Positions 32,335 through 46,433 of a stretch of DNA of 64,000 nucleotides are shown one piece after another. The notes below the pieces were generated by a model. That model made no database searches, was not told the origin of the DNA, and worked only from the letters and a program-made list of their open reading frames with translations. This DNA is from Russula earlei. Lineage: Eukaryota; Basidiomycota; Agaricomycetes; Russulales; Russulaceae. The stretch's first letter is position 1. Each line of letters starts with the position of its first letter. The position numbers were made by a program, and so were the translations under genes. The stretch is from contig JAGFNK010000056.1 of the NCBI GenBank assembly GCA_025769875.1, positions 1-64,000 of the forward strand, in the 5' to 3' direction.

Positions 32335-33779
32335 TTCCTTTCATGCCATCTCCTCTTTGTCCTCACATCATCATCATCATCGCCACCAGCACAGCACCAC
32401 CCTTGCCCCCATCAACCACTGCACGCCCTCGCCCTCAATGCCCCCACCTTCACCATGCACCGACGAGTCCCAATGCACAGCTGAAGAGCCCCATACCATG
32501 CCACCGTCTTCGTTGCCATCAGACAGTGTTGCTACTGTACATTTCGGTATGCTTTTCTCCCCTTTTTTACTAGACTCTCATTTTGTTAGTCAGAGATCTG
32601 CACGCCGCCTATGCGTCCATTTCCCAGCCTGCCACCATCTTCCCTCTCCCTTTCTACTTCCATGCCCCCTCGCTCCTCTACCTCGCATCTGCCATCCAAG
32701 TTCTCCAATCATCCCACCCGCAATCGCGTTCAGCAGCGCCATCAGCGCCCAAGTGACCACCCACCAGCACTCTCCCTATCCCCCCTCCAGCCTCTCCTTT
32801 GCATCGTCTCCCCCTCCTCGTGTCAGTGACTCGACCACACCCCTTGTCACCACACCTGGCCTCGGCCATCCTTCACAAATTGCCACATGCCACTACCACA
32901 GCCACTGGAGACCATGACTCGATACCTCACGTTGTCCAGCTTCAGTCCCCTTCTCATGTCTAGATTTCCTTTCATATGCCTGTCTTTTGTGCTTTTCCTG
33001 TCCCTTAGCCTTAGTTCCCACCTGTATCTGCTACCATGTTGAATAAAGTTGCCCTGTTGTTCCCTTATCATCTGTGTGAACCTGAGTGCAGTCGAATGAA
33101 CAAATGCGTTCTTGCATTCCCACTAGGTGCTCCTCCTCTTTGGAGCTTCAGTCTTATGAAGTCATTCTGCATTCTTGGACACACTTCACCACCCCATGGG
33201 CTCAGGTGTGCACTTCCTGGGGGGGCTCCTTCCCAGCACATGACCATGCTACTGTCACACAATATGAGGGAAATGACGTTGCACACCACAATGCTTGAGT
33301 CAAAAACACTATGGGGCTGCCTCAAGACAGCCCATGGGTACAACATGAGGGAAAAATAATAGATATAGACTGCGATTTTGAGTTGTAATTCATCTAATAC
33401 ACATGTGGAGGTGGCTTGAGTCCAGCTCCACCAATTCTCACTCAAATCTCATGAAAACAATGGGGCTGCCTAGCCCTCATTCAGGCGATTCAGGGACAAT
33501 AAGTTTTATGTGAATTGAAGCTGTTTTGAGGGAGATATTTGCCCTGCACATTTGAGAGGGTTTTCTGTGCCGATTTGGGTGGAATTCAAACTCCACCAAA
33601 TGCGCTGAAAACTGGCAATAATTTTGTAAATAGGTGTGGAACTTGATCTTCTTCCTCAGTAGTAAGACTTCTCCAATTGTTCATAGGCTTTAAATGATGG
33701 TTATTGTCCAATGGCCATTGTTCCAAGGATATGTTATGGTGTAGGCTGGTTTTAGTCTTCCTTGGTGTTTTCTTAATGT
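32335..33779. other. No gene recognised; Pro/Ser/His-rich frames
   Basis: The plus frame 32330-32917 is His/Pro/Ser-rich and CT-biased, as expected for low-complexity DNA. 32930-33115 repeats 22440-22620. 33400-33779 has no coding signal and ends at the left terminus of the TIR element. Confidence 0.4.
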
Positions 33780-33898
33780 CGTTTTCACGTGACCTTGCAC
33801 TTGCCATTTATGGATGTCATTTCAAGTGTGAAATTAAAACTGCTATATCTCAACAGTTTCTCAACAGATTGCCTTGAAATTTTGCCAGTAGAACCTTA

Positions 33899-34463
33899 GG
33901 CCCCTTTTACCAACCAAGAATTCTTGAATCTTGAACTTGAACTTGATTTCAGGGATTTTCCAGGAGTGACAGGAGTGACAGGAGTGATGTAAGTAATATG
34001 ATGTATATGATAAATTAATATGCATTTTTTTCTGTTGTCATTTGCATATTCGCATATATGGGGTTACACATGATGTGTCAGCGTCAAACTTGGAGTCAAG
34101 CAGTCCAACTTGAGCTCAACATCTGGGTGCTTGCAGCCCCATTTTCACCAGAGCTGCACATACAAAATTTGCACAAAGATGTGCACCCACACATTGGTGA
34201 CACATGTGCTGCCTTAATGACATGCTTGCAATACCCCACTTGGAAGGAGTGGAAGGAAGGGGTTAGAAAAAATATTTTACATATCACATGCAAACCCAAC
34301 ACATGAATGCAAATCACACTGAAAAATAACTCATTTTGAAATAGACTCATATTAGTTTATTCATGTCACTTACATCACACCTGACATTCCCATCACTCCT
34401 GGAAAATCCCGAAATCCAAGTTCAAGTTCAAGATTCAAGAATTCTTGGTTGGTAAAAGGGGCC
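33899..34463. mobile_element. PIF/Harbinger-type MITE, TSD TTA
   Basis: A 565-bp element with ~70-bp near-perfect inverted termini starting GGCCCCTTTTACCAACC, flanked by TTA at 33896-33898 and 34464-34466. The 3-bp TTA duplication and GGCCC terminus are characteristic of PIF/Harbinger. The empty site is preserved in the right TIR near 46200, confirming the ends. It has no coding capacity. Confidence 0.9.
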
Positions 34464-34618
34464 TTATATACTATATCTAGGTGCAGCAAAAATATGGGAG
34501 TCTAATATTCAGTTCTTGAGATGTCAATTTTCAGGTGCTGACATGAGTGCAAAACTTTGAACTGCCATATCTCAACTGTTTCTCAACAGATTTACTTGAA
34601 ACTTCGACAGTGGGATCT

Positions 34619-35170
34619 TGTTAGGATTCTCTCGTTCTCTGACTGTCATTTGTCTTGATGACTCATCTGTGATTACTCATATGTCTGCTTACTGATCTTG
34701 ATCATGGTCGCTTACTGATTGCTTACTGATTGCTTACTCACTGCTTACTGATTGCTGAGTGATTGCTTACTGATTCATGACTGATACTAGGAAAGAATGA
34801 CTCACGCGTGAGTCATTTCTAACATTCTTCGAACTGCGCTCTCTGTATTTGCATACTACTGGTTCTCAGCTATGTGTACCCCGAGTTTCAGTACAAATCG
34901 GATCAGTAGTTATTGAGATATCGTATAAATAGTCTGTGGTACCAAGAAGTCGAGCCTTATGCTCGACTTACTCTCTCAACAAGACAACTATCTTGTTAAC
35001 CAATCTAAAACAACATACAGTGCAGACTCTAACTGAAAGAGGACCCTCTCTCTCTTTTCTACATTCAATCTTCCTGAGATAATATCAAAGGGTTCGAAGT
35101 CTAGTGCTTGAACTATATCAAGCAACTCTTTCACTAAAGAGTTGGTACTAAGATCCGCAGGATCTTAACA
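34619..35170 (+). mobile_element. Solo LTR, TSD GATCT
   Basis: A 552-bp LTR from TGTTAGGATTC to ATCTTAACA, flanked by GATCT at 34614-34618 and 35171-35175. TATA-like CGTATAAATAG is near 34930. GCTTACTGATT is tandemly repeated at 34700-34775. The right TIR keeps the empty site (GAGATCCCACTG near 46048). Confidence 0.92.
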
Positions 35171-35599
35171 GATCTCATGTCCTGTATCTAAATGCAGCCC
35201 AAGAGTTGGGGCATAATTATCAGTTCTTGAAGTTTCGATTTTTGGGTGCAATCTGAGTGTGAAATTTCGAACTGCCATATCTCAACCATTTCTCAATAGA
35301 TTGCCTTGAAACCTGGAAAGTAGAACCTTATATACTGTATCTAGGTGCAACTAAAATATGGGAGCCTAATATTCAGTTCTTGAAGTTTCGAATTTTGGGT
35401 GCCGATCTGCATGCGAAATTTTGAACAGCCATATCTCAACTATTTCTCAATGGATTGCCTTGAAACTTGGACATCAGAACCTCATGTACTGTATCTAGAG
35501 GCAGCCAAATAATTGGGTTTCATTTCACATTGTGGGGTGCCGACCCCAAGCATGATAAGATTACATTTGCTCTACAGCTGAAAACATGACATGATACAA

Positions 35600-36367
35600 C
35601 TATTTACAACTGTAGCACGCAAGAAGGGCACGCTTGAGGTGTTCATGGGAGGTAGCGATTGCGATCGCGCATGAATGTGTGAGGAGCGGCGTGTAAGGAA
35701 AGTTGGGCTTAAGGCACGAGGATACAATGAAGCGGAAGTGGGAGCCTGTCGGGAGATGCGGATCTGGGAAGGTGCGGAAGCGGATGGGAGAGGGTGGGTA
35801 AAGCAGGACGGTCTTGTTTGTATGTGCCAAGACATCTGAACAAGGCCAGGAGCAGGTTCACCACGCGATCGGAGAGCGTGGGGGACGTATACGCACATTC
35901 GTATTTATTGGAGGGCCAGAGCTTGGTCAGCTTGTCCACTCAGGTTGCAGATGAAGAGTTGGGCCATCCATCCATGACTCAGTGGAAGCAGCAGTGGCGG
36001 GACGCCAAAGGAGGAGGACATCATGTTCAGTCGCATTGGCACCAGTGAGAGGATATCAGATGACAACTTTGACGGCGTCTGGATAGACTGCCCAAATGCG
36101 CGTAAAGATGACATCAGTGGCAGAATTGATGAGCGGCGCAATGACAAAGTCTGTAGCAAACAAGATCAGGAGGGTATTGATGGACAAGGTTATGATTGAT
36201 GTGAGGCGAGTTGCAGGAAGAGAGAACAGCATTTTCCATAGCACGTCTTTTTTTTGTTGGTCTGTGGGGGCAGTCAGAACAAAGTGAGGCGATAGACAAA
36301 GGTGAGGAGCAAGGCTTGCCTCGTTTCGAGCCACAGGTGTGGTCGACTCATCTTCCTTGGCATCCAT
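35600..36367 (-). pseudogene. PhoD-like phosphatase gene fragment (captured)
   Basis: The minus-strand frame from 36367 encodes a membrane-anchor region (LFATDFVIAPLINSATDVIF) then TRIWAVYPDAVKVVI. An internal stop follows where an Arg codon is expected. Homology continues in other frames with WPSNKYECAYTSPTLSDRVV and FRTFPDPHLPTGSHFRFIVS before a Pro-Asn-Phe-Pro-Tyr segment. These match the N-terminal part of fungal PhoD/alkaline-phosphatase-D-like proteins as I know them. The catalytic metallophosphatase core is absent. The fragment ends in the inner part of the left TIR. Confidence 0.6.
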
Positions 36368-37451
36368 CGGAGGGGGAGGTGGTGATGGTTTGGAAAGTTG
36401 AGGTGCAAGAGAAACAGTCAGGCATAAGCGAAATAGAGACTTGGAAGCAAGTATCTACACCCACGGAATGGGGCCTAAAGCATGTTCACAGGTCAGAAAG
36501 CAGCCGAGAGAGAAAAAAAAAAAAGGACCAACCACACGAAGAAAAAGATATGAAAATAGAGGAGGACGGTCGGAGACTGCAGAGAGGGGAGACAGGGGAA
36601 GGGAAGAAACTTGGGGCAGCGACACCGCTCGGTACTCGCCATGCTGTGTCATGTGAGAACAGGTACTTCATTGCAGAAAATGCCAGCTCAATTGGGTTAT
36701 AATCAGGGGAATAGGGCAGCAGAAATTCGTCATGCATGCCCCTAAATATGAACAGGAGTGTCAACGCTTGTCAATAGATGTGAATAGAATTTACCGAGAT
36801 TCAATAAGCTCTATAATGGCAGGGTCCTTGTGAATTCAACAATTGTCCATAACAATGACTGAATTGGGGGCCGGAAATGGCTGCATATGGTCCAAGAGGC
36901 AATTGATGAATGTGCAGAAAAGCTCAGTGTTGAAAGAGCCTTCAACGATGTCACAGTGTATAATACCATCATTGAGAGATAACGCAGGAAGGACAGAATA
37001 TCTGGCACATGAAAATCATGAGTTACATGGCATTATGGATGGCATGTCACTCACCGTCGTCCTCGACAGAAAAATGCCTTGCGCGTGGCTTTCCTGCCAC
37101 GAATAGCCCAAGCTCGTCCATGGTATGTTGTTCGGTGATCAACAGAACTCTCATCCACAAAGATAATCTGATTTGGATGCTAGGTTCCAATACGTGCAGC
37201 AAATGCAGCTTGCTTTTCTTCACAACACTCAAGTGCAGTGCGTGAGAGCTATCCATCATGTATCAGAAGCTTGAAATGTACATAAGGAAAAGTGCGTACC
37301 TTCTTCAAGCTATAGCCAGCCTTGACAAGTGTCCTCCATATCGTTGACACTGATACCAACACCCCACATGTCTCTAACATTTCCATACACAACTCATCGA
37401 GATAGAGATCTGGCAGGCTATTCAGAGTTGTCAACAGGTGCTGTATGGGTC

Positions 37452-37835
37452 TGTTGAACCGGAACCCGAACGGATCAAAGAAGGCGAAGACCTTCATACA
37501 AGGTTCAAGATCCGCTCATAGATGTTACGTGTTAGACAGAACTTTAGTATATGCGCTTATGGCAATAGGGTTACGCATAGTACGCTATCTATCACAAGAT
37601 GCAGCCTTATGCTGCGTCTAGAACGTTTCACATCACGTGTCACTTAATGCGCGATATAGTGGACACCTGTAGTCACCTCTTTTGGACTTAGGAACAGCCC
37701 TGGGTCATAGAGGTATAAATACCATACTTGTAGACGAGTATATACATCGCTCTACACCCCAATATCACTTGAGCATTAGCACAACCTCTAAGGTGGGTTG
37801 CTTGGCCTGTTAGCTGCGCTCTATGCTGCGCAACA
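37452..37835 (+). repeat. 5' LTR of copia C
   Basis: 384 bp, TG...CA, with TATA-like GGTATAAATACC near 37712. Confidence 0.95.
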
Positions 37836-37850
37836 GGTTATGGGCCCTGC
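37836..37850 (+). other. Primer binding site of copia C (half-tRNA type)
   Basis: GGTTATGGGCCCTGC directly follows the LTR, the same site as in elements A and B although the LTRs and proteins are unrelated at family level. Confidence 0.8.
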
Positions 37851-38003
37851 AAGCCATGCGCCTTCATCGGCTGCAACAATGGCGAAGCATCCCTGAAGCC
37901 TGCATGCTGCGGCGAGCTAGTCTACCCTATGGGGAGACTATGTTGGCTTGTTTAATACAAATACTCTTACTGACGACCTCTAAGCCCTCTTCTAACAGCT
38001 ACA

Positions 38004-39170
38004 ATGTCGTCGTCTCAACCCTCTGCCCCTGTTGTCCCCATCCTTGATGGCGCAAACTATGGTATTTGGTCAAAGGCTATGAAAGCCTACCTCATGTCCG
38101 TTGGACTGTGGGGTTATTGCAATGGCACTTTTGAACTGCCTACTGTCCCTGCCCTTCCTCAGGCGCCTCTTGCCGAAGAGATTGCTGCCCAGGCTGTCGC
38201 TCAGGCAGCCCTGAAAGAATGGAACAAAGGGAATGATATGGCAGTCGGTCATATGGTCCTTAGATCGAGCATCGCGATCCAACAAGATCTTACGTCTTTG
38301 GATAACGCTGAGACCATCTGGAATCGCCTTGATACCCTTTATGGTACGGCGACTACCACCAGCATCTATAAGGACTTCAAAGAAGCCATTTCCATTCGCA
38401 TTAACCCGAGCCAGCACCCTGGCCCTCAAACGGATCGGATACACGCTGCGTTCCAGCGCCTCACCGCATCCTCCCTTATTATTCCTGACACCTTACAGGC
38501 GCTCATCATGCTTGCAGCTATTCCCCCGAAATGGGAAATGCTTGTCCACATCGTCACTCAGAACTATGATCTAACCGATCTTAGTCCATCTCACGTCCGA
38601 GAGGCGATTATCTCTCAATATCAAACCGAGATCAATCGTGGAACAAGCAAAAAGCACAGCGCGCAGAAGCTTTCAGCTGTCAAGCGCAAGCATGGTGACC
38701 CCTCCTTCTCCAATCAGCAGCAGGGCAATAAGCCCAAGCGCGATGAAGATAAGGACAAGCGCCAGCGCGGCAAGCGCGGCGGCAAAGGAAAAGGGAAAGG
38801 CAAGGAGAAGGCTGATAACAGCCATGGTCCCGGACACTCCCATATTGCGGATGTTGCCGCACTCCCACTCCCGACCATTACCACTATCGCCCATCTGGGT
38901 CCTTCGGGGATCCAACAACGTACCGTCCCAACTGCGACTGACCATCGCAAACGCACTCACGGCCCTTACAAGGCCTTAAACAAAGCGCTTGATCTTGCTG
39001 ACAATCTTGGGGTAACTCCCACTATACAGACAGTCAAGACCCTCGAGCAGCGGATCTCGACTCAATCCGCTGCCTCGACAAGTGCAGTCAAACTTCCGTC
39101 GCCCGTCCCTGAGCCTATGGACCAGGACGATGGCGACTTCACACAAACTAATACAGTCGGATTTATTTGA
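38004..39170 (+). CDS. Gag protein of copia C
   Basis: 388 residues from ATG 38004. The N-terminus has the copia gag opening VPILDGANYGIWSKAMKAYL. The C-terminal third has no CCHC zinc knuckle; instead there is a strongly basic tract (KRDEDKDKRQRGKRGGKGKG) that could bind RNA. It overlaps the following pol frame by 89 nt in the +1 frame, which would allow frameshift translation, or the overlap may be a lesion like those further down. Forms the virus-like particle in the cytoplasm. Confidence 0.85.
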   Translation: MSSSQPSAPVVPILDGANYGIWSKAMKAYLMSVGLWGYCNGTFELPTVPALPQAPLAEEIAAQAVAQAALKEWNKGNDMAVGHMVLRSSIAIQQDLTSLDNAETIWNRLDTLYGTATTTSIYKDFKEAISIRINPSQHPGPQTDRIHAAFQRLTASSLIIPDTLQALIMLAAIPPKWEMLVHIVTQNYDLTDLSPSHVREAIISQYQTEINRGTSKKHSAQKLSAVKRKHGDPSFSNQQQGNKPKRDEDKDKRQRGKRGGKGKGKGKEKADNSHGPGHSHIADVAALPLPTITTIAHLGPSGIQQRTVPTATDHRKRTHGPYKALNKALDLADNLGVTPTIQTVKTLEQRISTQSAASTSAVKLPSPVPEPMDQDDGDFTQTNTVGFI

Positions 39171-42100
39171 CATATACGACGGTATCCCAGAAGGTGCTGC
39201 CACCCCTGAGCGTGCTCCGACTCTGTCGGATGAAGCGCTTGATTGGGGCAGCGACCCCGAAGATAATGAAGCGTGCGTGCGCCTCCCTCTCTCCTTTCAC
39301 TCGCTAAAGAACCTATTAGCATCTCCCCAGCCCCAAAGCGGGCTAGATATGTCTAATAAATGTTCGCTTGTATCATATAATGTACAAATTAGCGAAGGGA
39401 CTACTTCCCTTCAAAGTGAATGTAACAAAAATTGTTCGAGATGTAGAGGAAAGCACGACTTGAGTAAAATGGGATCCTTATGGCTCCTTGACTCTGGCGC
39501 GTCCGCACACTTCACCTTCGAAATAAAAGACTTTATAGAGTATACGCCGGCTTTGCCGCACGAAAGATCCCCTGTTAAAACTGCCGATAACACTATATAT
39601 GTGGAAGGCAAAGGCGCTGTGTTACTTCGGCACACTGTCAACTCCAAAACGGTTGTCACGCGCATTTCTCCTGTTCTTTATATTCCGAAAATTAACACTC
39701 GGATATTATCTATGGGGGAGTTTTTACAACAAGGGATGCATGCATTAGGGAATAGAAATCATATTTCCCTACGAGAGGACGGACGTATAATCCTGTCCTC
39801 TTACCCCTTATTCCCGGGTCAAACCACGTATTGGTTAGACGCCTCAATTGAAAGCGCGCAAGCGCATTCTCTTATCTATGCGGTAGATTATGATGTCATA
39901 CACCGATGCCTTGGCCACCCATCTAAGGATGTCGTAACACGTGCTAAGACACATACCAAGGGTCTCCCTGAAGACCTGAAAATCCCTCAGGAACAGCCGG
40001 TATGTCCTGGCTGCGTGCAAGGCAAAATGCCTGCATCTGCGCACCCCCCTTCTGAAACTCGTGCTTCCGCACCGTTCGAGCGTATCCACTCGGACCTCAA
40101 GAGTTTCCCTGTGAAGTTGTATCATAAGTACGAATATTTCGTCAGCTTCATTGACGATTATTCCTCCTATGCATGGATCACACTCTTAAAAAATAAAAAG
40201 TCGACCATAATGGCCGTCAAGCAATTCCTTGCTATGGTGAAGAACCAATACAAAGCAGGAATCAAAGAGTGGATGTCCGATGCTGGCGGAGAGTACAAAT
40301 CCGAGGCCTTTGATAACATCCTAAAGGACGAAGGAATTAAAATCCTGCAAAGTGCCCCATACACTCCACAACAGAATGGACGCGCAGAGCGCTTTATGCG
40401 CACTGTAATGGACAAAGCTCAAGCAATGCGCCTTGAAGCTTGTCTACCTCCCTCCTGGTGGGAATTTGCAGTGAATCATGGGACACACTGTTACAATAGG
40501 ACACCTGCCAGACGCCTTCAATGGCGTACACCCTACGAAGTCCTAAAGAACGAGGTCCCTGATATTTCACACCTCAGAGTATTTGGTTGCGGTGCATATG
40601 TGCACATACCAGAAAAGCGTCGAAGTCAACAAGCTTTCGCCTAAAAGCGAGCTTATGATCTACCTTGGTCACACTGAGGGGATCAAAGCCTCACTCTTCA
40701 TGAGGCTCCCAAATAATACGCTTTACACAAATGCTACCGCCCTGTACGATGAGACCCTGTACCCCAAATGCGACAAAGCGCGCACTAAAGGTACCACACG
40801 GATTAATGAACCGCGTGAGGAACTACCGCAACAACCTGTCGAAGACACCATTCCTGGTGTTGACGACCCATTCCCTACAATTAAAAGTGAGGACGATGAG
40901 CAGCCTATACAGGCGCCACAAGAAGAGGAACGCGAGCAAACGCCCGTCCCTCCTACACCGTCCCCTCCTCCCGTTGAAGAGCCTGTACCTCTTCGAAGGT
41001 CTCAGCGGTTGAGGAAAGTACCTACCCGTCCAGGCAACGTCTATGGTGAACGCAGACACCCCACAGAAGTGGAAAAAGACGTTCAGGCGCACACGCACAT
41101 GGAGAACAATGACAGAAAACCAACCCGGTAGCTCCGGTGAGGGTAGTACGTCAGGATCGGCCGCACCAGGCCCTTACCCTCCTGTCGTCCTTGACGATCA
41201 ACCGCCGCAAGCCTCTGAGGATGAGGTAGAAGACATTCTACGTCTTGCAAGGGAAGGGGGAGTCAAATTTCTGAACTATCTGCTCGCCCAAGCAGTTCCA
41301 CTAAGTTCAGATGCACCTGATACTGCGAAGATTCGCGAATGGACCTTTAGGGACATTCTGCGAATGCCAAGTGAACTCCAAAAGGAGTGGAAAGATGCTT
41401 GTCGCGAGGAGTTGGAATCCCTCCGCAGACGCAAAGTCTTCGAACTAGTCGATCCTCCCAAGGATCGCAAAATAATCAAAAATAGATGGGTATTCGACCT
41501 TAAGTCTGATGGTCGTAAAAAAGCCAGACTAGTCGCCAAAGGCTTCTCCCAAGTAGAAGGCATTGACTATGACGAAATATTCTCACCCGTGGTACGGTTT
41601 GAGACAGTCCGCCTGATGATTGCGCTCAGCAGCGCTCAAAAACTGGCACATTAGCGGACTAGACGTCAAGACTGCCTTTCTCTATGGAGAGCTCGATGAA
41701 GAGCTCTATATGGAGCAGCCTGAGGGCTTCAAAATAAAAGGCCAAGAGCGTAAAGTCATGCACCTTAAACGCGCAATATATGGACTCAAGCAAGCGGCAC
41801 TTGCTTGGTGGAAAGCCCTTGACAAGTCCATGGCCTCGCTCGGCCTTATTCGCCTTATGTCTGACTCTGGGCTCTTTGTCAGTAAAGACAAGAGCATCAT
41901 AGCCATCGTCTATGTTGATGATGTGCTCTTCTTTGGAGCAGACAAAAAACAAATCAATAAAACAAAGGAGCGCTTCATGAAGCTCTGGGAATGTCGAGAT
42001 CTGGGCGATGCCCAAGAATTTCTATGCATGCGCATCATACGCAAGTCTGGGCAAATACATTTGGACCAGACTGAGTACCTAAGGAAAGTGCTGCAGCGTT

Positions 42101-42861
42101 TTGACTTGCTTAACGCAAACCCTGCTCCTACTCCGCTACCAGAGGGCTATCACCCCTCTCCCAACACTTCCGCTGCTGACCCAGCCTTGCGGTCAAAATT
42201 CCAGCAAGTTATAGGATCACTCCTATACATAATGCTTGGAACGCGTCCAGACATAGCCTTTGCTGTCACAAAGTTGTCGCAACATGCTGCCAATCCCTCA
42301 GAGGATCATTTAAATCGTGCATACTATATTTGCCGATACCTCTTGGGAACCGCCAATTATGCCTTGGTCTATGATGGACCATCTAATGGTGGTTTGATGG
42401 CATATGCCGACTCTGACTGGGCTTCTGATCCGACTAATCGGAAGTCCACTACAGGCTATATGGTGAACCTGGCTGGAGCAATATTTTCGTGGAACTCACG
42501 AGCGCAGAAAACAGTTGCGCTCTCCTCCACTGAAGCCGAGTACATGTCGCTCTCTGACACGAGCAGACAGTTAGTTTGGATTAAATCCTTACTAACAGAA
42601 CTTGGCATCAATCTTGCTCCCATCCCACTGTTCGGTGATAACCAAGGCTCAATATTCTTAGCCTCCAACCCTGTGCAAGAAAAGCGCATCAAACACATTG
42701 ATTTGCGCTATCACTTCATTCGTGAAGTCATACAAAATAAACAGGTGGAGCTATTCTTTATTGAAGGGGCTAACAACCCAGCCGACATGTTCACCAAGAA
42801 CCTTGGTCGCGTCAAGTTCCTCAAATTCAGGGAGCAACTAGGACTAACGTTCTACCCCTGA
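39082..42861 (+). pseudogene. Pol polyprotein of copia C, three frame breaks
   Basis: Protease (LLDSGASAHF near 39485), integrase (HRCLGHPS and CPGCVQGK zinc residues; HSDLKSF, DAGGEYKS and NGRAERF for DDE), linker, reverse transcriptase ([24 protein letters not shown] near 41910) and RNase H (YADSDWASDPTNRKSTTGYM; STEAEYMSLSDTSRQ). Homology shifts frame near 40620, between 41043 and 41131, and near 41635; each needs one or two bases. Domain order is copia. With these breaks no full Pol can be made as written, despite very young LTRs. Confidence 0.88.
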
Positions 42862-42910
42862 ATGTGGGAAAATGCTCACGGCATCTACCGATGCACTTAG
42901 CAAGGGGGAG

Positions 42911-43295
42911 TGTTGAACCGGAACCCGAACGGATCAAAGAAGGCGAAGACCTTCATACAAGGTTCAAGATCCGCTCATAGATGTTACGTGTTAGACAGAA
43001 CTTTAGTATATGCGCTTATGGCAATAGGGTTACGCATAGTACGCTATCTATCACAAGATGCAGCCTTATGCTGCATCTAGAACGTTTCCACATCACGCGT
43101 CACTTAATGCGCGATATAGTGGACACCTGTAGTCACCTCTTTTGGACTTAGGAACAGCCCTGGGTCATAGAGGTATAAATACCATACTTGTAGACGAGTA
43201 TATACATCGCTCTACACCCCAATATCACTTGAGCATTAGCACAACCTCTAAGGTGGGTTGCTTGGCCTGTTAGCTGCGCTCTATGCTGCGCAACA
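42911..43295 (+). repeat. 3' LTR of copia C
   Basis: 385 bp, nearly identical to the 5' LTR. Confidence 0.95.
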
Positions 43296-43559
43296 GGGTC
43301 CAATTTCAATAAAAAATGTGCTAGTACATTTTTTGTGCCACATACCTTGACATCATAGTCACAAAGCGACCGATGGAGTAGAGGTTTTCGCTTGGCAGGG
43401 AAGTTTGACACCACCAGTGTGCTTGAAGTTGGCGAGGATCCCTTCAACTTTTCGCACACTTACATCTGTATACATGGAGATATCCTCCGCCAACATGTTT
43501 GTACTGAGATGAATGATGATCCATTGCACTTCTTCTGAGATTGCTTTGCCTTGAGCCAT

Positions 43560-44204
43560 GGCAGTGATGGGTGTGTTGAAAGTTTTCCCTCTTTGGGTAT
43601 GCTGTGACCAAAATGGACATCTCTATCTCCAACCTTTCCCATCATGCTGTCTCACTCAGCCTTGTCCATTGTCCATCCACCATCAACCCTGCATCTGTTG
43701 CACCTGCCGTATCCTTATCGTGAGCCATCTTAGCTTCGTCAGCCACTCCATTCTTTGCCTTGCCAAGTTGTCGCCATCACATCCCCAGTTCTGCCCACTG
43801 CTGCCTCTTGTCCATCGGCACCTGCTTCGTCCACCGAGTCTTCATATTGCCTGCCGCCGTCATTTCAGCATCACTGGCTGTCTACATCACCAACACTATC
43901 CCTGTCTCTAGTTGTTTCAATTCTGTCGGCCATTCTGTTGGCCACATGTGCTGCCTTGCCGGCCTTATCTGCCCCAGTTGTCTCAATCCCAGTCGCCGCA
44001 GTCTCAGTCTCCTCCTCATCTCCTCTAGCCGCCGTTACTTCAGTTCAACCAGCCCCTACAAAGTCAGCTTCGTCTGGCTTCTTCCACAGCTTCAGTCTCG
44101 CTCGCAGCCATTACCTCAGCTCGTCCACTGCCACTGTTTTGGTCTCGACCCTGTCCATCATTTTAGTCTCATGCAACACATGTTGTCCAAGAAGGCCCCG
44201 GACC
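43560..44204. other. Unrecognised DNA inside the TIR element
   Basis: CT-rich with Ser/Pro/His-rich frames on the plus strand. No family recognised; possibly another captured non-coding or decayed fragment. Confidence 0.35.
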
Positions 44205-45075
44205 TGAGCTCTGTCACTTCGCCACCTCAGGAGGAGCACAAACCGCCTCCACACTGCCAGTGCCTGAGACGCTGCTGACACAAGTAATATGCCCCACACC
44301 ACCCCTCATGTCGCCTCATCCCCGTGGGTCTGACTGTGTCATACAACTGTGTTGACCATTAGGCATTCAAACATCCCAACAAGGTCCATACTGCCATAGA
44401 TTATGATTGATCAGAGCCATTTCCGGGTATCTCCGTGTTGGATGGCTCATCTATCCCAGACCACTATCATTTACAAAGCTGATGAGCCCAACAAAGGTCG
44501 AGAGGTCCCTATGCTGAATTGCCACATGACTGTTTCTAGTGTTGCCAATGTACTGAAATCTCTCGGCATCAAGAAAGGTGATTCCATCTCTATCTACCTT
44601 CCTCTGGCATGACAAGCGGTTGCTGCCCTCCTCGTGTGTGCGCACATTGGTGCCATAAGGACGACGCGGCTCTGGCAGTCATTGATACGGTCACGATTTG
44701 CCCCTGCAGAGAAGCCAGAAAACACGACAGAGTGGACGGCCGAACAAGGGCGTCGTGGTGGGAAGACTATCGCAACCAAAGCAGTCGATTCAGCACTGAA
44801 GGGCTGCCCACACGTTGAGCACGTCCTCGTTCTTAGGCACATGGGGAACAAAGTTCCGTGGATGCAGGGCCGTGACAAGTGGTGGCACAAGGAGCCGATG
44901 CGAGTCCTCAATCACTGCACGCCAGAGATCTTGTCAGCGAAGATCCACTCTTTATTCTTTATGTGAGATGCCTGCTTGCACATGCCCATCGGCACACATC
45001 TGAACTCACTGCAGAGGAGGGAACCCATGACGTGCAAGTTCCATGTCTTGCTCGAGACCAAACACATATGATAGT
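44205..45075 (+). pseudogene. Acetyl-CoA synthetase gene fragment with internal micro-inversion (captured)
   Basis: Covers roughly the N-terminal third of a fungal acetyl-CoA synthetase. Visible pieces: SVTSPPQEEHKPPPH at the start; AFKHPNK; TIIYKADEPNKGRE; SVANVLKSLGIKKGDSISIY; QAVAALLVCAHIGA; EQGRRGGKTIATKA; CPHVEHVLVLRHMGNKVPW; GRDKWWH; and SEDPLFILYV. Between HIGA and EQGRRGG the expected segment (VHSVVFSGFSAGANRDRIND and the next few residues) is present only on the opposite strand, at 44655-44737. Several stops and frame breaks occur, and the adenylation P-loop and everything after it are missing. It is a dead copy of a host gene; the parent is not in this window. Confidence 0.85.
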
Positions 45076-45629
45076 ATGATGCACTGTGTGGGAGAACAAA
45101 ATGAAAGGTAGACAGGAATGATGAAGGTATGTCTCCCTGAATCCCATCCTTCCTCCAGACCCCTCTGCTCCTTCACACGCGTCCGGCTGCTAACAGGTCG
45201 AGACTTGTACACCGGTGCTTGTGGTCCCATCATCCCTCGATAGAGAATGTGACAGACAGCTGGCCACAGTCGGACCAGAAGGGAATAATGATTTCCACCT
45301 TCAGAGTCATGTAATTGAATGCCCAGGTGAAAGGGGCAAGCTTTCATATCCAAGGGTCAACAACAATGTCCTGATATCAGGTATGTATGATGCACCACAT
45401 ATGATAGAGCTGTCCTGATCCCTCTAATGATAAATGAGCACATTTTTCTGCGGGTTGGGTAGGCAATGAAGGTAGTGCGCATGTGAATGCCGCGTCACAC
45501 ACAACAAACGCTGAAAGGTGCCCAAGCATACACTGTTGCTCACCGCGTCACTCCAGCCTACCAAGCCATCCCTCCATCATTCGCCATTGTTTGCCGCCGC
45601 CGTACGCGAGGGCTCGCAGCCCACTATTC
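45076..45629. other. Unrecognised DNA inside the TIR element
   Basis: A plus frame at 45215-45418 (containing NNDFHLQSHVIECPGERG) looks like part of a coding exon followed by a GTATGT donor, but I do not recognise the gene. It may be a further captured fragment. Confidence 0.35.
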
Positions 45630-46308
45630 GCCCATTCACGTGCGATCGCAATCACTGCCTCAATGCACGCCTTGCATCATTGTTTCGATTTTGTCTTATT
45701 GCTCTTCCGTCAGTCCTTGTCCGGTCCTATGAATGTACCCTTCTCGTGCGCTACGTCATAAATAGTTGTATCATATCATGTGCTCAGCTGTAGGGATAAT
45801 GTAATTTTATCATGCTTGGGGTCAGCACCCCAAAACGTGAAAATTCAATGAGTGAAACCAATTATTTGGCTGCCTCTGGATACAGTACATGAGGTTCTAC
45901 TGTCCAAGTTTCAAGGCAATCCATCGAGAAATGGTTGAGATATGACAGTTCGAAAAATCACACGCAGATGGGCACCCAAAAATCGAAACTTCAAGAACTG
46001 ATAATTAGACACCAACTCTTGGGCTGCACCTAGATACAGTACATGAGATCCCACTGTCGAAGTTCCAAGTCAATCAATTCAGAAACAGTTGAGATATGGC
46101 AGTTCAAAGTTTTGCACTCATGTCAGCACCTGAAAATCGACATCTCAAGAACTGAATATTAGACTCCCATATTTTCGCTGCACCTAGATATAGTATATAA
46201 GGTTCTACTGGCAGAATTTCAAGGCAATCTGTTGAGAAACTGTTGAGATATAGCAGTTTTAATTTCGCACTTGAAATGACATCCAAAAATGGCAAGTGCA
46301 AGGTCACG
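45630..46308 (-). repeat. Right terminal inverted repeat, three ~153-bp units
   Basis: Reverse complement of the left arm without the two insertions. Unit cores start at about 45908, 46061 and 46216 (spacing 153 and 155 bp). It keeps the empty sites for the MITE and the solo LTR of the left arm. Confidence 0.85.
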
Positions 46309-46433
46309 TGAAAACGATAGTAATCAAATTCGAGAGTAATTGTGATGGTAAGAGTGCATTTAGCAAACTCGGCTGGGATGTCGTGAGATTAACGTTCGTC
46401 CTTTCGTACGCGGTGATAGGTTAAAACGTTCAT

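What the first reader, a model, noticed from the sequence alone, without database searches (positions are those of the whole stretch)
33780..46308. Large TIR element carrying PhoD and acetyl-CoA synthetase fragments with tandem ~153-bp terminal units
Two inverted arms of ~630-790 bp (without insertions), each an array of three or four ~153-bp units, enclose pieces of unrelated host genes. Long TIRs plus captured genes recall Pack-MULEs, but repeat-built termini of this type in a fungus are not something I can match to a named superfamily. It may be an undescribed gene-capturing element.
Basis: partly seen in the sequence, partly recalled or inferred. Interest (0 to 1): 0.8.

Follow-up and report, generated by a model that had tools for sequence, protein, structure and literature searches.

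The report
Gene-capturing long-armed fungal jumping gene
It is one copy of a fungal DNA transposon whose ends are long arrays of a repeated 154-letter unit and which carries broken pieces of its host's genes; it looks like a Tc1/mariner element that has grown foldback-style arms, an unusual pairing of known traits rather than a new class of mobile DNA.

Summary
The element spans 33773-46323. Its arms are arrays of a ~154-bp unit, one unit more on the left (517 of 555 aligned positions identical), and it carries acetyl-CoA synthetase (ACS) and PhoD fragments. Leaving out a nested MITE, a solo LTR and a 5.8-kb Copia element gives ~5.58 kb, matching a 5,576-bp copy elsewhere.

The terminal 34 bp matches 420 times in the genome, 0 in the reversed control. 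Flanks and cargo differ between copies. Parent ACS and PhoD genes were located; the ACS capture includes an apparent intron.

It is not a MULE. Two usable empty sites show insertion at TTAA with a TA duplication. Forty places, this one included, carry a Tc1/mariner DDE exon at 85-100% identity (whole remnant DDE_3 E=3e-22). All nine copies whose transposase I read carry stops.

Some subfamilies turned one half into 1.7-2.9-kb palindromic arms.

Verdict: a Tc1/mariner element with foldback-like, unit-built arms and transduplicated host gene fragments. Each trait is known; nine capped open-library searches listed no report of the combination in a fungus.

The parts
33773..46323 (.). Whole element with nested insertions; about 5,577 bp without them (my arithmetic)
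   Evidence: Termini TTAATGTCG.../...CGATAGTAA; uninterrupted 5,576-bp paralogue in L041 222-5797
33773..35606 (+). Left arm: about four 154-bp units, interrupted by a MITE and a solo LTR
45759..46323 (-). Right arm: about three 154-bp units, inverted relative to the left arm
33899..34463 (.). Nested MITE, 565 bp with ~113-bp TIRs, target duplication TTA; PIF/Harbinger-like by TSD and termini (recalled)
34619..35170 (.). Nested solo LTR, 552 bp, TG...CA ends, target duplication GATCT
37452..43295 (+). Nested Copia-type LTR retrotransposon, LTRs ~384 bp (381 of 387 aligned columns identical), target duplication GGGTC; absent from paralogue L041
   Evidence: Copia assignment read from the ORFs (recalled motifs, no family search run)
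43392..43553 (-). Transposase remnant, N-terminal piece, split from the rest by the Copia insertion
   Evidence: tblastn with P0001
36639..37446 (-). Transposase remnant: HTH_Tnp_Tc3_2 and DDE_3 pieces, interrupted and without the C-terminal ~45 residues of relatives
36059..36454 (-). Captured 5' part of the host PhoD gene with sequence upstream of a plausible start
   Evidence: parent C43:78025-78401; PF09423 at C43:76488-76763 on the same strand
44326..45015 (+). Captured ACS fragment including an apparent intron
   Evidence: (parent L077 830-1522)

Best explanation
The feature is a defective copy of a Tc1/mariner (IS630-Tc1-mariner, DD34E) cut-and-paste transposon lineage. Its terminal inverted repeats have grown into arrays of a ~154-bp unit, and it has captured genomic fragments of host genes (ACS, PhoD and others). 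Inferred mechanism: a Tc1-type transposase acting in cis or in trans recognises the terminal ~30 bp, cuts the element out and inserts it at TTAA, duplicating TA. Capture happened a few times, from genomic DNA; each captured form was then multiplied by transposition. In some lineages one half of the element, captured gene included, was copied over the other half in inverted orientation, making palindromes that were then amplified without the transposase. Shown: mobility (same element, different flanks, two empty sites), TA duplication at those two, transposase family, parent genes for two fragments, cargo differences, palindromic derivatives. Inferred: trans-mobilisation, how the half-copying happened, its order in time, and that the 154-bp units aid transposase binding.
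For: Termini: 235 forward and 185 reverse matches, 0 and 0 in the reversed control; 21 inward-facing pairs 3.6-5.8 kb apart among the first 100 listed. Of 41 distinct ends read, 38 carry TTA at the boundary, and flanks beyond it look random; 12 of 13 complete copies (two of them, C23 and C688, with the same flanks) read TTA...TAA. Two usable two-sided empty sites in other copies of the same retroelements both show TTAA (C33, C169). The window DDE piece has 40 rows at 85-100% identity among 135 matches. The concatenated transposase of copy L061 matches DDE_3 at 3.3e-22 and HTH_Tnp_Tc3_2 at 6.4e-5; its best hit is an Amanita protein at 58%, and relatives have 34 residues between D and E. Parent genes: ACS C133, PhoD C43. 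Cargo differs: L042 and L043 share only the arms with L041. Palindromes: L039 2,927 bp at 98.9%, L042 1,739 bp at 97.2%.
Against: No copy with an uninterrupted transposase was found: all eight copies read and the window have at least one stop; the other copies were not read through. Only about 40 places carry the DDE exon, against about 200 elements implied by 420 ends, so trans-mobilisation is assumed. The T before TA is almost invariant (38 of 41 ends), stricter than an ordinary Tc1/mariner TA target. Terminal sequence and 154-bp unit share no significant similarity (shuffle fraction 0.44), so the units have no demonstrated binding sites. Comparisons at five other loci (L012, L015, L016, L035, L036/L011) do not show a clean TTAA in the empty copies held; at C220 (L036/L011) both flanks come from the same side of the site. 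C290's left end reads TGAC instead of TTAC.
Confidence: 0.84

Rival explanations
1. The transposase is a passenger: a Tc1/mariner gene captured like ACS and PhoD, while the arms are moved by an unidentified TTAA-targeting transposase (for example piggyBac- or Kolobok-like).
For: Target TTAA; only ~40 places hold the DDE exon against 420 ends; near-invariant TTA. The genome was not searched with piggyBac or Kolobok models.
Against: piggyBac and Kolobok duplicate all four bases TTAA (recalled), whereas here only TA is duplicated. The transposase lies in the interior, collinear with L041, in most carriers compared, and its family predicts the observed TA duplication.
Confidence: 0.1
2. A Pack-MULE or MULE-type foldback element.
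For: Long TIRs with captured gene fragments; other foldback elements are MULEs, such as Tm1 with mostly 9-bp duplications (PMC3169594, passages).
Against: No direct repeat of 6 bp or more (one mismatch allowed) beside any of 13 complete copies; two empty sites give TA only. The enclosed transposase is DDE_3, not MULE.
Confidence: 0.03
3. Not a transposon: a segmental inversion or inverted duplication of satellite DNA that trapped gene pieces.
For: Arms are tandem repeats; one locus (C220) has matching inverted flanks.
Against: Hundreds of precise ends, 41 distinct flanks among those read, and clean empty sites.
Confidence: 0.01

Closest known systems
Tc1/mariner (IS630-Tc1-mariner) DD34E transposons of Agaricomycetes, e.g. 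Amanita phalloides protein P0001
   Same: HTH plus DDE_3 transposase, 58% identity to P0001; 34 residues between D and E in four relatives; TA duplication
   Different: 5-6 kb instead of the usual short element (recalled); unit-built arms and palindromic arms of up to 2.9 kb; host gene fragments; near-fixed TTAA target. The DNA around the relatives was not seen
Galileo (P superfamily foldback-like element, Drosophila)
   Same: Long TIRs with internal tandem repeats (~210-bp units in subfamily F), TIR growth by recruiting internal sequence, chimeric copies (PMC3573991 and PMC3688188, passages)
   Different: P-superfamily transposase with THAP domain and 7-bp duplications (passages)
Tm1 and Tetris foldback elements
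   Same: Foldback arms with tandem units (Tetris ~220 bp, Tm1 ~14 bp); Tm1 also has histone-hairpin-motif and MITE-like derivatives (PMC3169594, PMC4079207, passages)
   Different: 8-10 bp duplications; Tm1 transposase is MULE (Phantom-like)
Pack-TYPE transposons, including Pack-Mariner of rice and maize
   Same: TIR elements, Mariner ones with TA duplication, carrying host gene fragments, some from several loci (PMC8903248, passages)
   Different: Reported there for plants, Mariner ones mostly low copy; no unit-built or palindromic arms in the passages read
hAT histone-H3 transduplication in Dothideomycete fungi
   Same: DNA transposon in a fungus amplifying a captured host gene (PMC3538342, PMC6710886, passages)
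   Different: hAT superfamily, 8-bp duplications and 18-20 bp TIRs in the passages of PMC6710886

Membership tests
Tc1/mariner (IS630-Tc1-mariner) | DDE/D transposase of the Tc1/mariner type with HTH domain | tested here: met
   DDE_3 3.3e-22 and HTH_Tnp_Tc3_2 6.4e-5 (below its curated cut-off) on the concatenated remnant of one copy; window pieces 0.001, 0.001 and 0.017 for DDE_3 and 1.4e-4 for HTH_Tnp_Tc3_2
Tc1/mariner (IS630-Tc1-mariner) | 2-bp TA target duplication | tested here: met
   Both usable two-sided empty sites; 12 of 13 complete copies read TTA...TAA; five further loci not decisive
Tc1/mariner (IS630-Tc1-mariner) | DD34E spacing | tested here: met
   34 residues in the four relatives for which the motif was printed, of six asked; in this family it needs an inferred intron left out; P0001 itself has K in place of E
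Tc1/mariner (IS630-Tc1-mariner) | Intact transposase in the same family (shows autonomy; not needed for membership) | tested here: inconclusive
   Nine copies read, all with stops; C241 and C228 keep the C-terminus, the PhoD-behind copies compared do not; other copies not read through
Foldback-type (structural, not phylogenetic) | Long TIRs built of tandem sub-repeats | tested here: met
MULE / Pack-MULE | 8-10 bp target duplication | tested here: not met
   0 of 13 complete copies have a direct repeat of 6-12 bp with at most one mismatch; empty sites
MULE / Pack-MULE | MULE transposase in the lineage | not tested
   The enclosed transposase is DDE_3; the genome was not searched with a MULE model
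piggyBac / Kolobok | 4-bp TTAA target duplication | tested here: not met
   TTAA is the target but only TA is duplicated
Pack-TYPE (gene-fragment-carrying TIR element) | Host gene fragments between TIRs, parent gene elsewhere in the genome | tested here: met
   ACS and PhoD

The most novel reading that the evidence does not exclude
An undescribed fungal Tc1/mariner lineage has evolved a capture-and-palindrome cycle: it takes up genomic pieces of host genes next to its arms, then copies that half over the other half, so captured host sequence becomes part of multi-kb inverted repeats and is amplified. If transcribed, such palindromes would be natural hairpin-RNA genes able to silence the transposon, and perhaps the host genes the pieces came from.
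Probability: 0.15. Interest if true: 0.75.

Novelty: new variant of a known kind. Interest (0 to 1): 0.52.

Why it matters
In the papers whose passages I read, long unit-built arms belong to MULE and P elements, and gene capture in fungi to Helitrons (cited in a passage of PMC6431247) and hAT elements. A Tc1/mariner lineage with both, with hundreds of ends and several cargo classes, would show that foldback arms and gene capture arise independently in a further superfamily. It would also give a genome-internal series (plain arms, half-copied arms, full palindromes) for testing how inverted repeats grow and whether gene-bearing palindromes feed small-RNA silencing.

Tried and rejected
MULE/Pack-MULE: rejected on target duplication and transposase. 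Segmental inversion of a satellite: rejected by unrelated flanks and empty sites. The abundant 360-aa-ORF Tc1 family as mobilising partner: the one copy fetched (L076) has 221-bp TIRs and no match to these termini. Secondary binding sites in the 154-bp unit: local similarity of terminus and unit is no better than shuffles (fraction 0.44). A shared MITE as proof of later movement: C424 has a MITE at the same TTA of the outermost unit, but C146, C241 and C695 share only the left junction, so repeated insertion at a favoured TTA is not excluded. Nudix name for the C25-class cargo: Pfam gave nothing and no parent gene stood out; the name rests on a recalled motif. L043 cargo: Pfam gave nothing for the one fragment tried; a transcription-factor-like start is recollection only. 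PDB search with the transposase: no match at E<=1. The host species was not identified; kinship is by transposase hits only. Two paper searches gave nothing on topic in the rows listed.
Full report
Observation. The arms are real. The repeat finder gives inverted pairs at 73-96% complementarity between 33768-35606 and 45759-46328, and TRF finds a 154-bp period in both arms. With the nested insertions left out, the left arm (716 bp) and the right arm (565 bp) agree at 517 of 555 gap-free positions, and the left has one extra unit. The element ends read TTAATGTCGTTTTCACGTGACC on the left and, reverse-complemented, TTACTATCGTTTTCACGTGACC on the right.

Nested insertions. Three other elements lie in it. 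A 565-bp MITE (33899-34463) is flanked by TTA. A 552-bp solo LTR (34619-35170) is flanked by GATCT. A Copia-type retrotransposon (37452-43295) is flanked by GGGTC, with LTRs alike at 381 of 387 aligned columns and gag-pol-like ORFs (motifs recalled). Subtracting them leaves about 5,577 bp. L041 (C200) holds the same element without the Copia, MITE or solo LTR, 5,576 bp long; its two long collinear matches to the window are 93% and 95% identical. The flanks of the two copies found no match in each other among the loci then held.

It is a mobile family. The 34-bp terminus with up to 3 mismatches occurs 235 times forward and 185 reverse in the 66.6-Mb genome, against 0 and 0 for the reversed pattern (only the first 100 places are listed). 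Among those 100, 21 inward-facing pairs lie 3.6-5.8 kb apart. The right arm alone gave 76 match rows, with 40 of 608 candidates scored. In 41 distinct ends read, TTA stands at the boundary in 38, and the ten bases outside it show no consensus. Some contigs carry near-identical flanks (C23/C688, C146/C241), so counts of ends somewhat exceed counts of insertions.

Target site. Two insertions lie in retroelement copies for which other, uninterrupted copies are held on both sides. For C33 the empty site reads GACTTGC-TTAA-CGCAAACC and the filled site GACTTGCTTA|TTGTC...GACAA|TAATGCAAACC. For C169 the empty site reads AAGGACC-TTAA-TAGAAG and the filled site GACCTTA|CTGTC...GACAG|TAATAGAAG. Both show insertion at TTAA with TA doubled. 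One-sided comparisons at L033 (C210) and L019 (C335) agree. L012, L015, L016 and L035 are not decisive because the available empty copies differ at or near the site (L015 and L035 by one base in a TTAAA/TTTAA stretch), and at C220 (L036/L011) both flanks come from the same side of the site. Of 13 complete copies, two of them (C23, C688) with the same flanks, 12 read TTA...TAA; none has a direct repeat of 6-12 bp with at most one mismatch beside its ends, and two have a 5-bp one with one mismatch.

Transposase. L041 2850-3700 has 42 match rows, 40 of 60 candidates scored. One of its reading frames carries HTH_Tnp_Tc3_2 (4.2e-5, under the curated cut-off), and the downstream part is DDE_3; the best DDE_3 hit in the genome, 4.6e-18, is in this family at C1 (150 of 408 candidates scored). 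The window's own pieces match DDE_3 at 0.001, 0.001 and 0.017 and HTH_Tnp_Tc3_2 at 1.4e-4. A read-through of copy L061 with X at stops scores DDE_3 3.3e-22. It finds 629 proteins at E<=0.001 among 966 candidates, led by an Amanita phalloides protein at 58% identity; those of the 120 listed that bear an organism name are nearly all Agaricomycete fungi (taxonomy recalled). The window DDE piece has 40 rows at 85-100% identity; most of the other 95 rows, at about 49-67%, mark other Tc1/mariner families. In 22 distinct copies of the DDE exon pN/pS is 0.43; 3 of the 22 have a stop (pairs are not independent). Relatives continue ~45 residues to ...FGW..HCGY. Searching the last 50 residues of three relatives against the loci held, C241 (L074) and C228 (L069) match at E<1e-11, and no other locus does better than 0.05 in the rows shown, the output being cut. 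The ten PhoD-behind copies compared there, C200 included, and the window match only to about residue 280-297 (rows of P0001 and P0003; those of P0014 were not printed); C290 (L040) also lacks the end. PhoD lies behind that point in those copies, so PhoD capture goes with loss of the transposase C-terminus. The eight copies I translated and the window all have at least one stop outside the inferred introns.

Captured genes. The genome has one ACAS_N match, in C133. L077 from there aligns with the element over 699 bp at 84.8% (C33) and 703 bp at 81% (window), including a stretch that breaks the ACS reading between ILY and TSGSTGKPKG and looks like an intron, so the source was genomic DNA. For PhoD the genome has one PF09423 match, C43:76488-76763 (-). 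The window fragment matches C43:78025-78401 on the same strand, upstream, at 65-78% in three rows, besides 40 other rows, many at places known to belong to this family; it includes sequence upstream of a plausible start.

Other cargo. C25 (L042) and C150 (L043) share with L041 only the arms, about 0.5-0.8 kb at 77-92%. Their interiors belong to other high-copy classes: 40 of 87 candidates scored, full-length rows at 95-100%, and 40 of 651 scored. L042 carries a Nudix-like motif, recalled; Pfam did not report it.

Palindromes. C33 (L039) is a near-perfect palindrome: 2,927 bp at 98.9%, consisting of the ACS half of an L041-like element repeated in inverted orientation around a short spacer. C290 (L040) has 2,700-bp arms at 95.3% with transposase remains between them. 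C25 has 1,739-bp arms at 97.2%. A plausible order, inferred only, is plain arms (C200, window), half copied over the other half with transposase kept (C290), transposase lost (C33 and kin). Gap repair or gene conversion between arms would do this; I did not test the mechanism. Galileo shows the same two routes of arm growth, tandem-unit expansion and recruitment of inner sequence (PMC3573991, passages).

Decay. L041 and the window differ by 275 transitions and 27 transversions in 5,284 aligned bases; 173 of the transitions are in CpG context. The C25 arms differ by 48 transitions and no transversion, the C33 arms by 23 and 4. This suggests cytosine methylation or a RIP-like process.

Mechanism, shown and inferred. 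Shown: many precise ends, TTAA target with TA duplication at two sites, Tc1/mariner DDE exon at 40 places including this one, two parent genes, different cargo, palindromic derivatives. Inferred: mobilisation by a DD34E transposase, largely in trans; capture from genomic DNA followed by amplification; a possible role of units in binding, for which the one similarity test was negative.

Known or new. Fungal transduplication is on record for hAT elements (PMC3538342, PMC6710886, passages), Pack-Mariner for plants (PMC8903248, passages), and foldback arms for P and MULE elements (passages). Nine searches of the open library, each showing 9-20 rows of up to 1,581 papers, listed no Tc1/mariner foldback element with captured genes in a fungus; subscription papers and repeat databases were not searchable. 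I therefore call it a new variant of a known kind.

Noticed in passing
window 33899-34463; High-copy 565-bp MITE with TSD TTA and GGCCCC termini, PIF/Harbinger-like (recalled); one search gave 133 match rows, several per place, with 40 of 1,445 candidates scored. It also sits in other elements' arms at a favoured TTA.
   Followed up: partly
window 37452-43295: Copia-type retrotransposon with 384-bp LTRs; another copy of the same family is the target of the C33 insertion.
   Followed up: partly
L076 (C44:36700-39700) and many of the 150 DDE_3 places: An abundant separate Tc1 family, ~1.6 kb with 221-bp TIRs (one copy fetched), many places with 320-360-aa open frames, apparently more intact than the finding's family.
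   Followed up: partly
C60, C99, C95, C747 and others: Further Tc1/mariner families at about 49-67% identity in the DDE piece, many with open frames of 100 aa or more; their termini were not examined, and one could be the mobilising partner.
   Followed up: no
C220:66981-77648 (L036, L011): Both flanks of this copy are inverted repeats of each other (96% over 300 bp), a larger palindrome that may be a rearrangement or misassembly.
   Followed up: no
L035 229-230, window 24828, L030 3021: The same TTAA of one retroelement LTR appears to have been hit by two copies (C169 and C335), a recurrent target.
   Followed up: partly
C23/C688, C146/C241, C116/C860: Near-identical flanks on different contigs suggest haplotype duplicates or segmental duplication, so copy counts are somewhat inflated.
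   Followed up: no
L041 5778-6425 (-): Chromodomain-bearing Ty3-type integrase end (SH3_Tf2-1 8e-17, Chromo 3.5e-11) directly beside the C200 copy.
   Followed up: no
L041 vs window, L042 arms: Substitutions between copies are about ten to one transitions, mostly at CpG, pointing to methylation-driven decay or a RIP-like process.
   Followed up: partly
L040 3963-4409: 148-aa open frame with no Pfam match in the centre of the C290 copy, possibly another captured gene piece.
   Followed up: no
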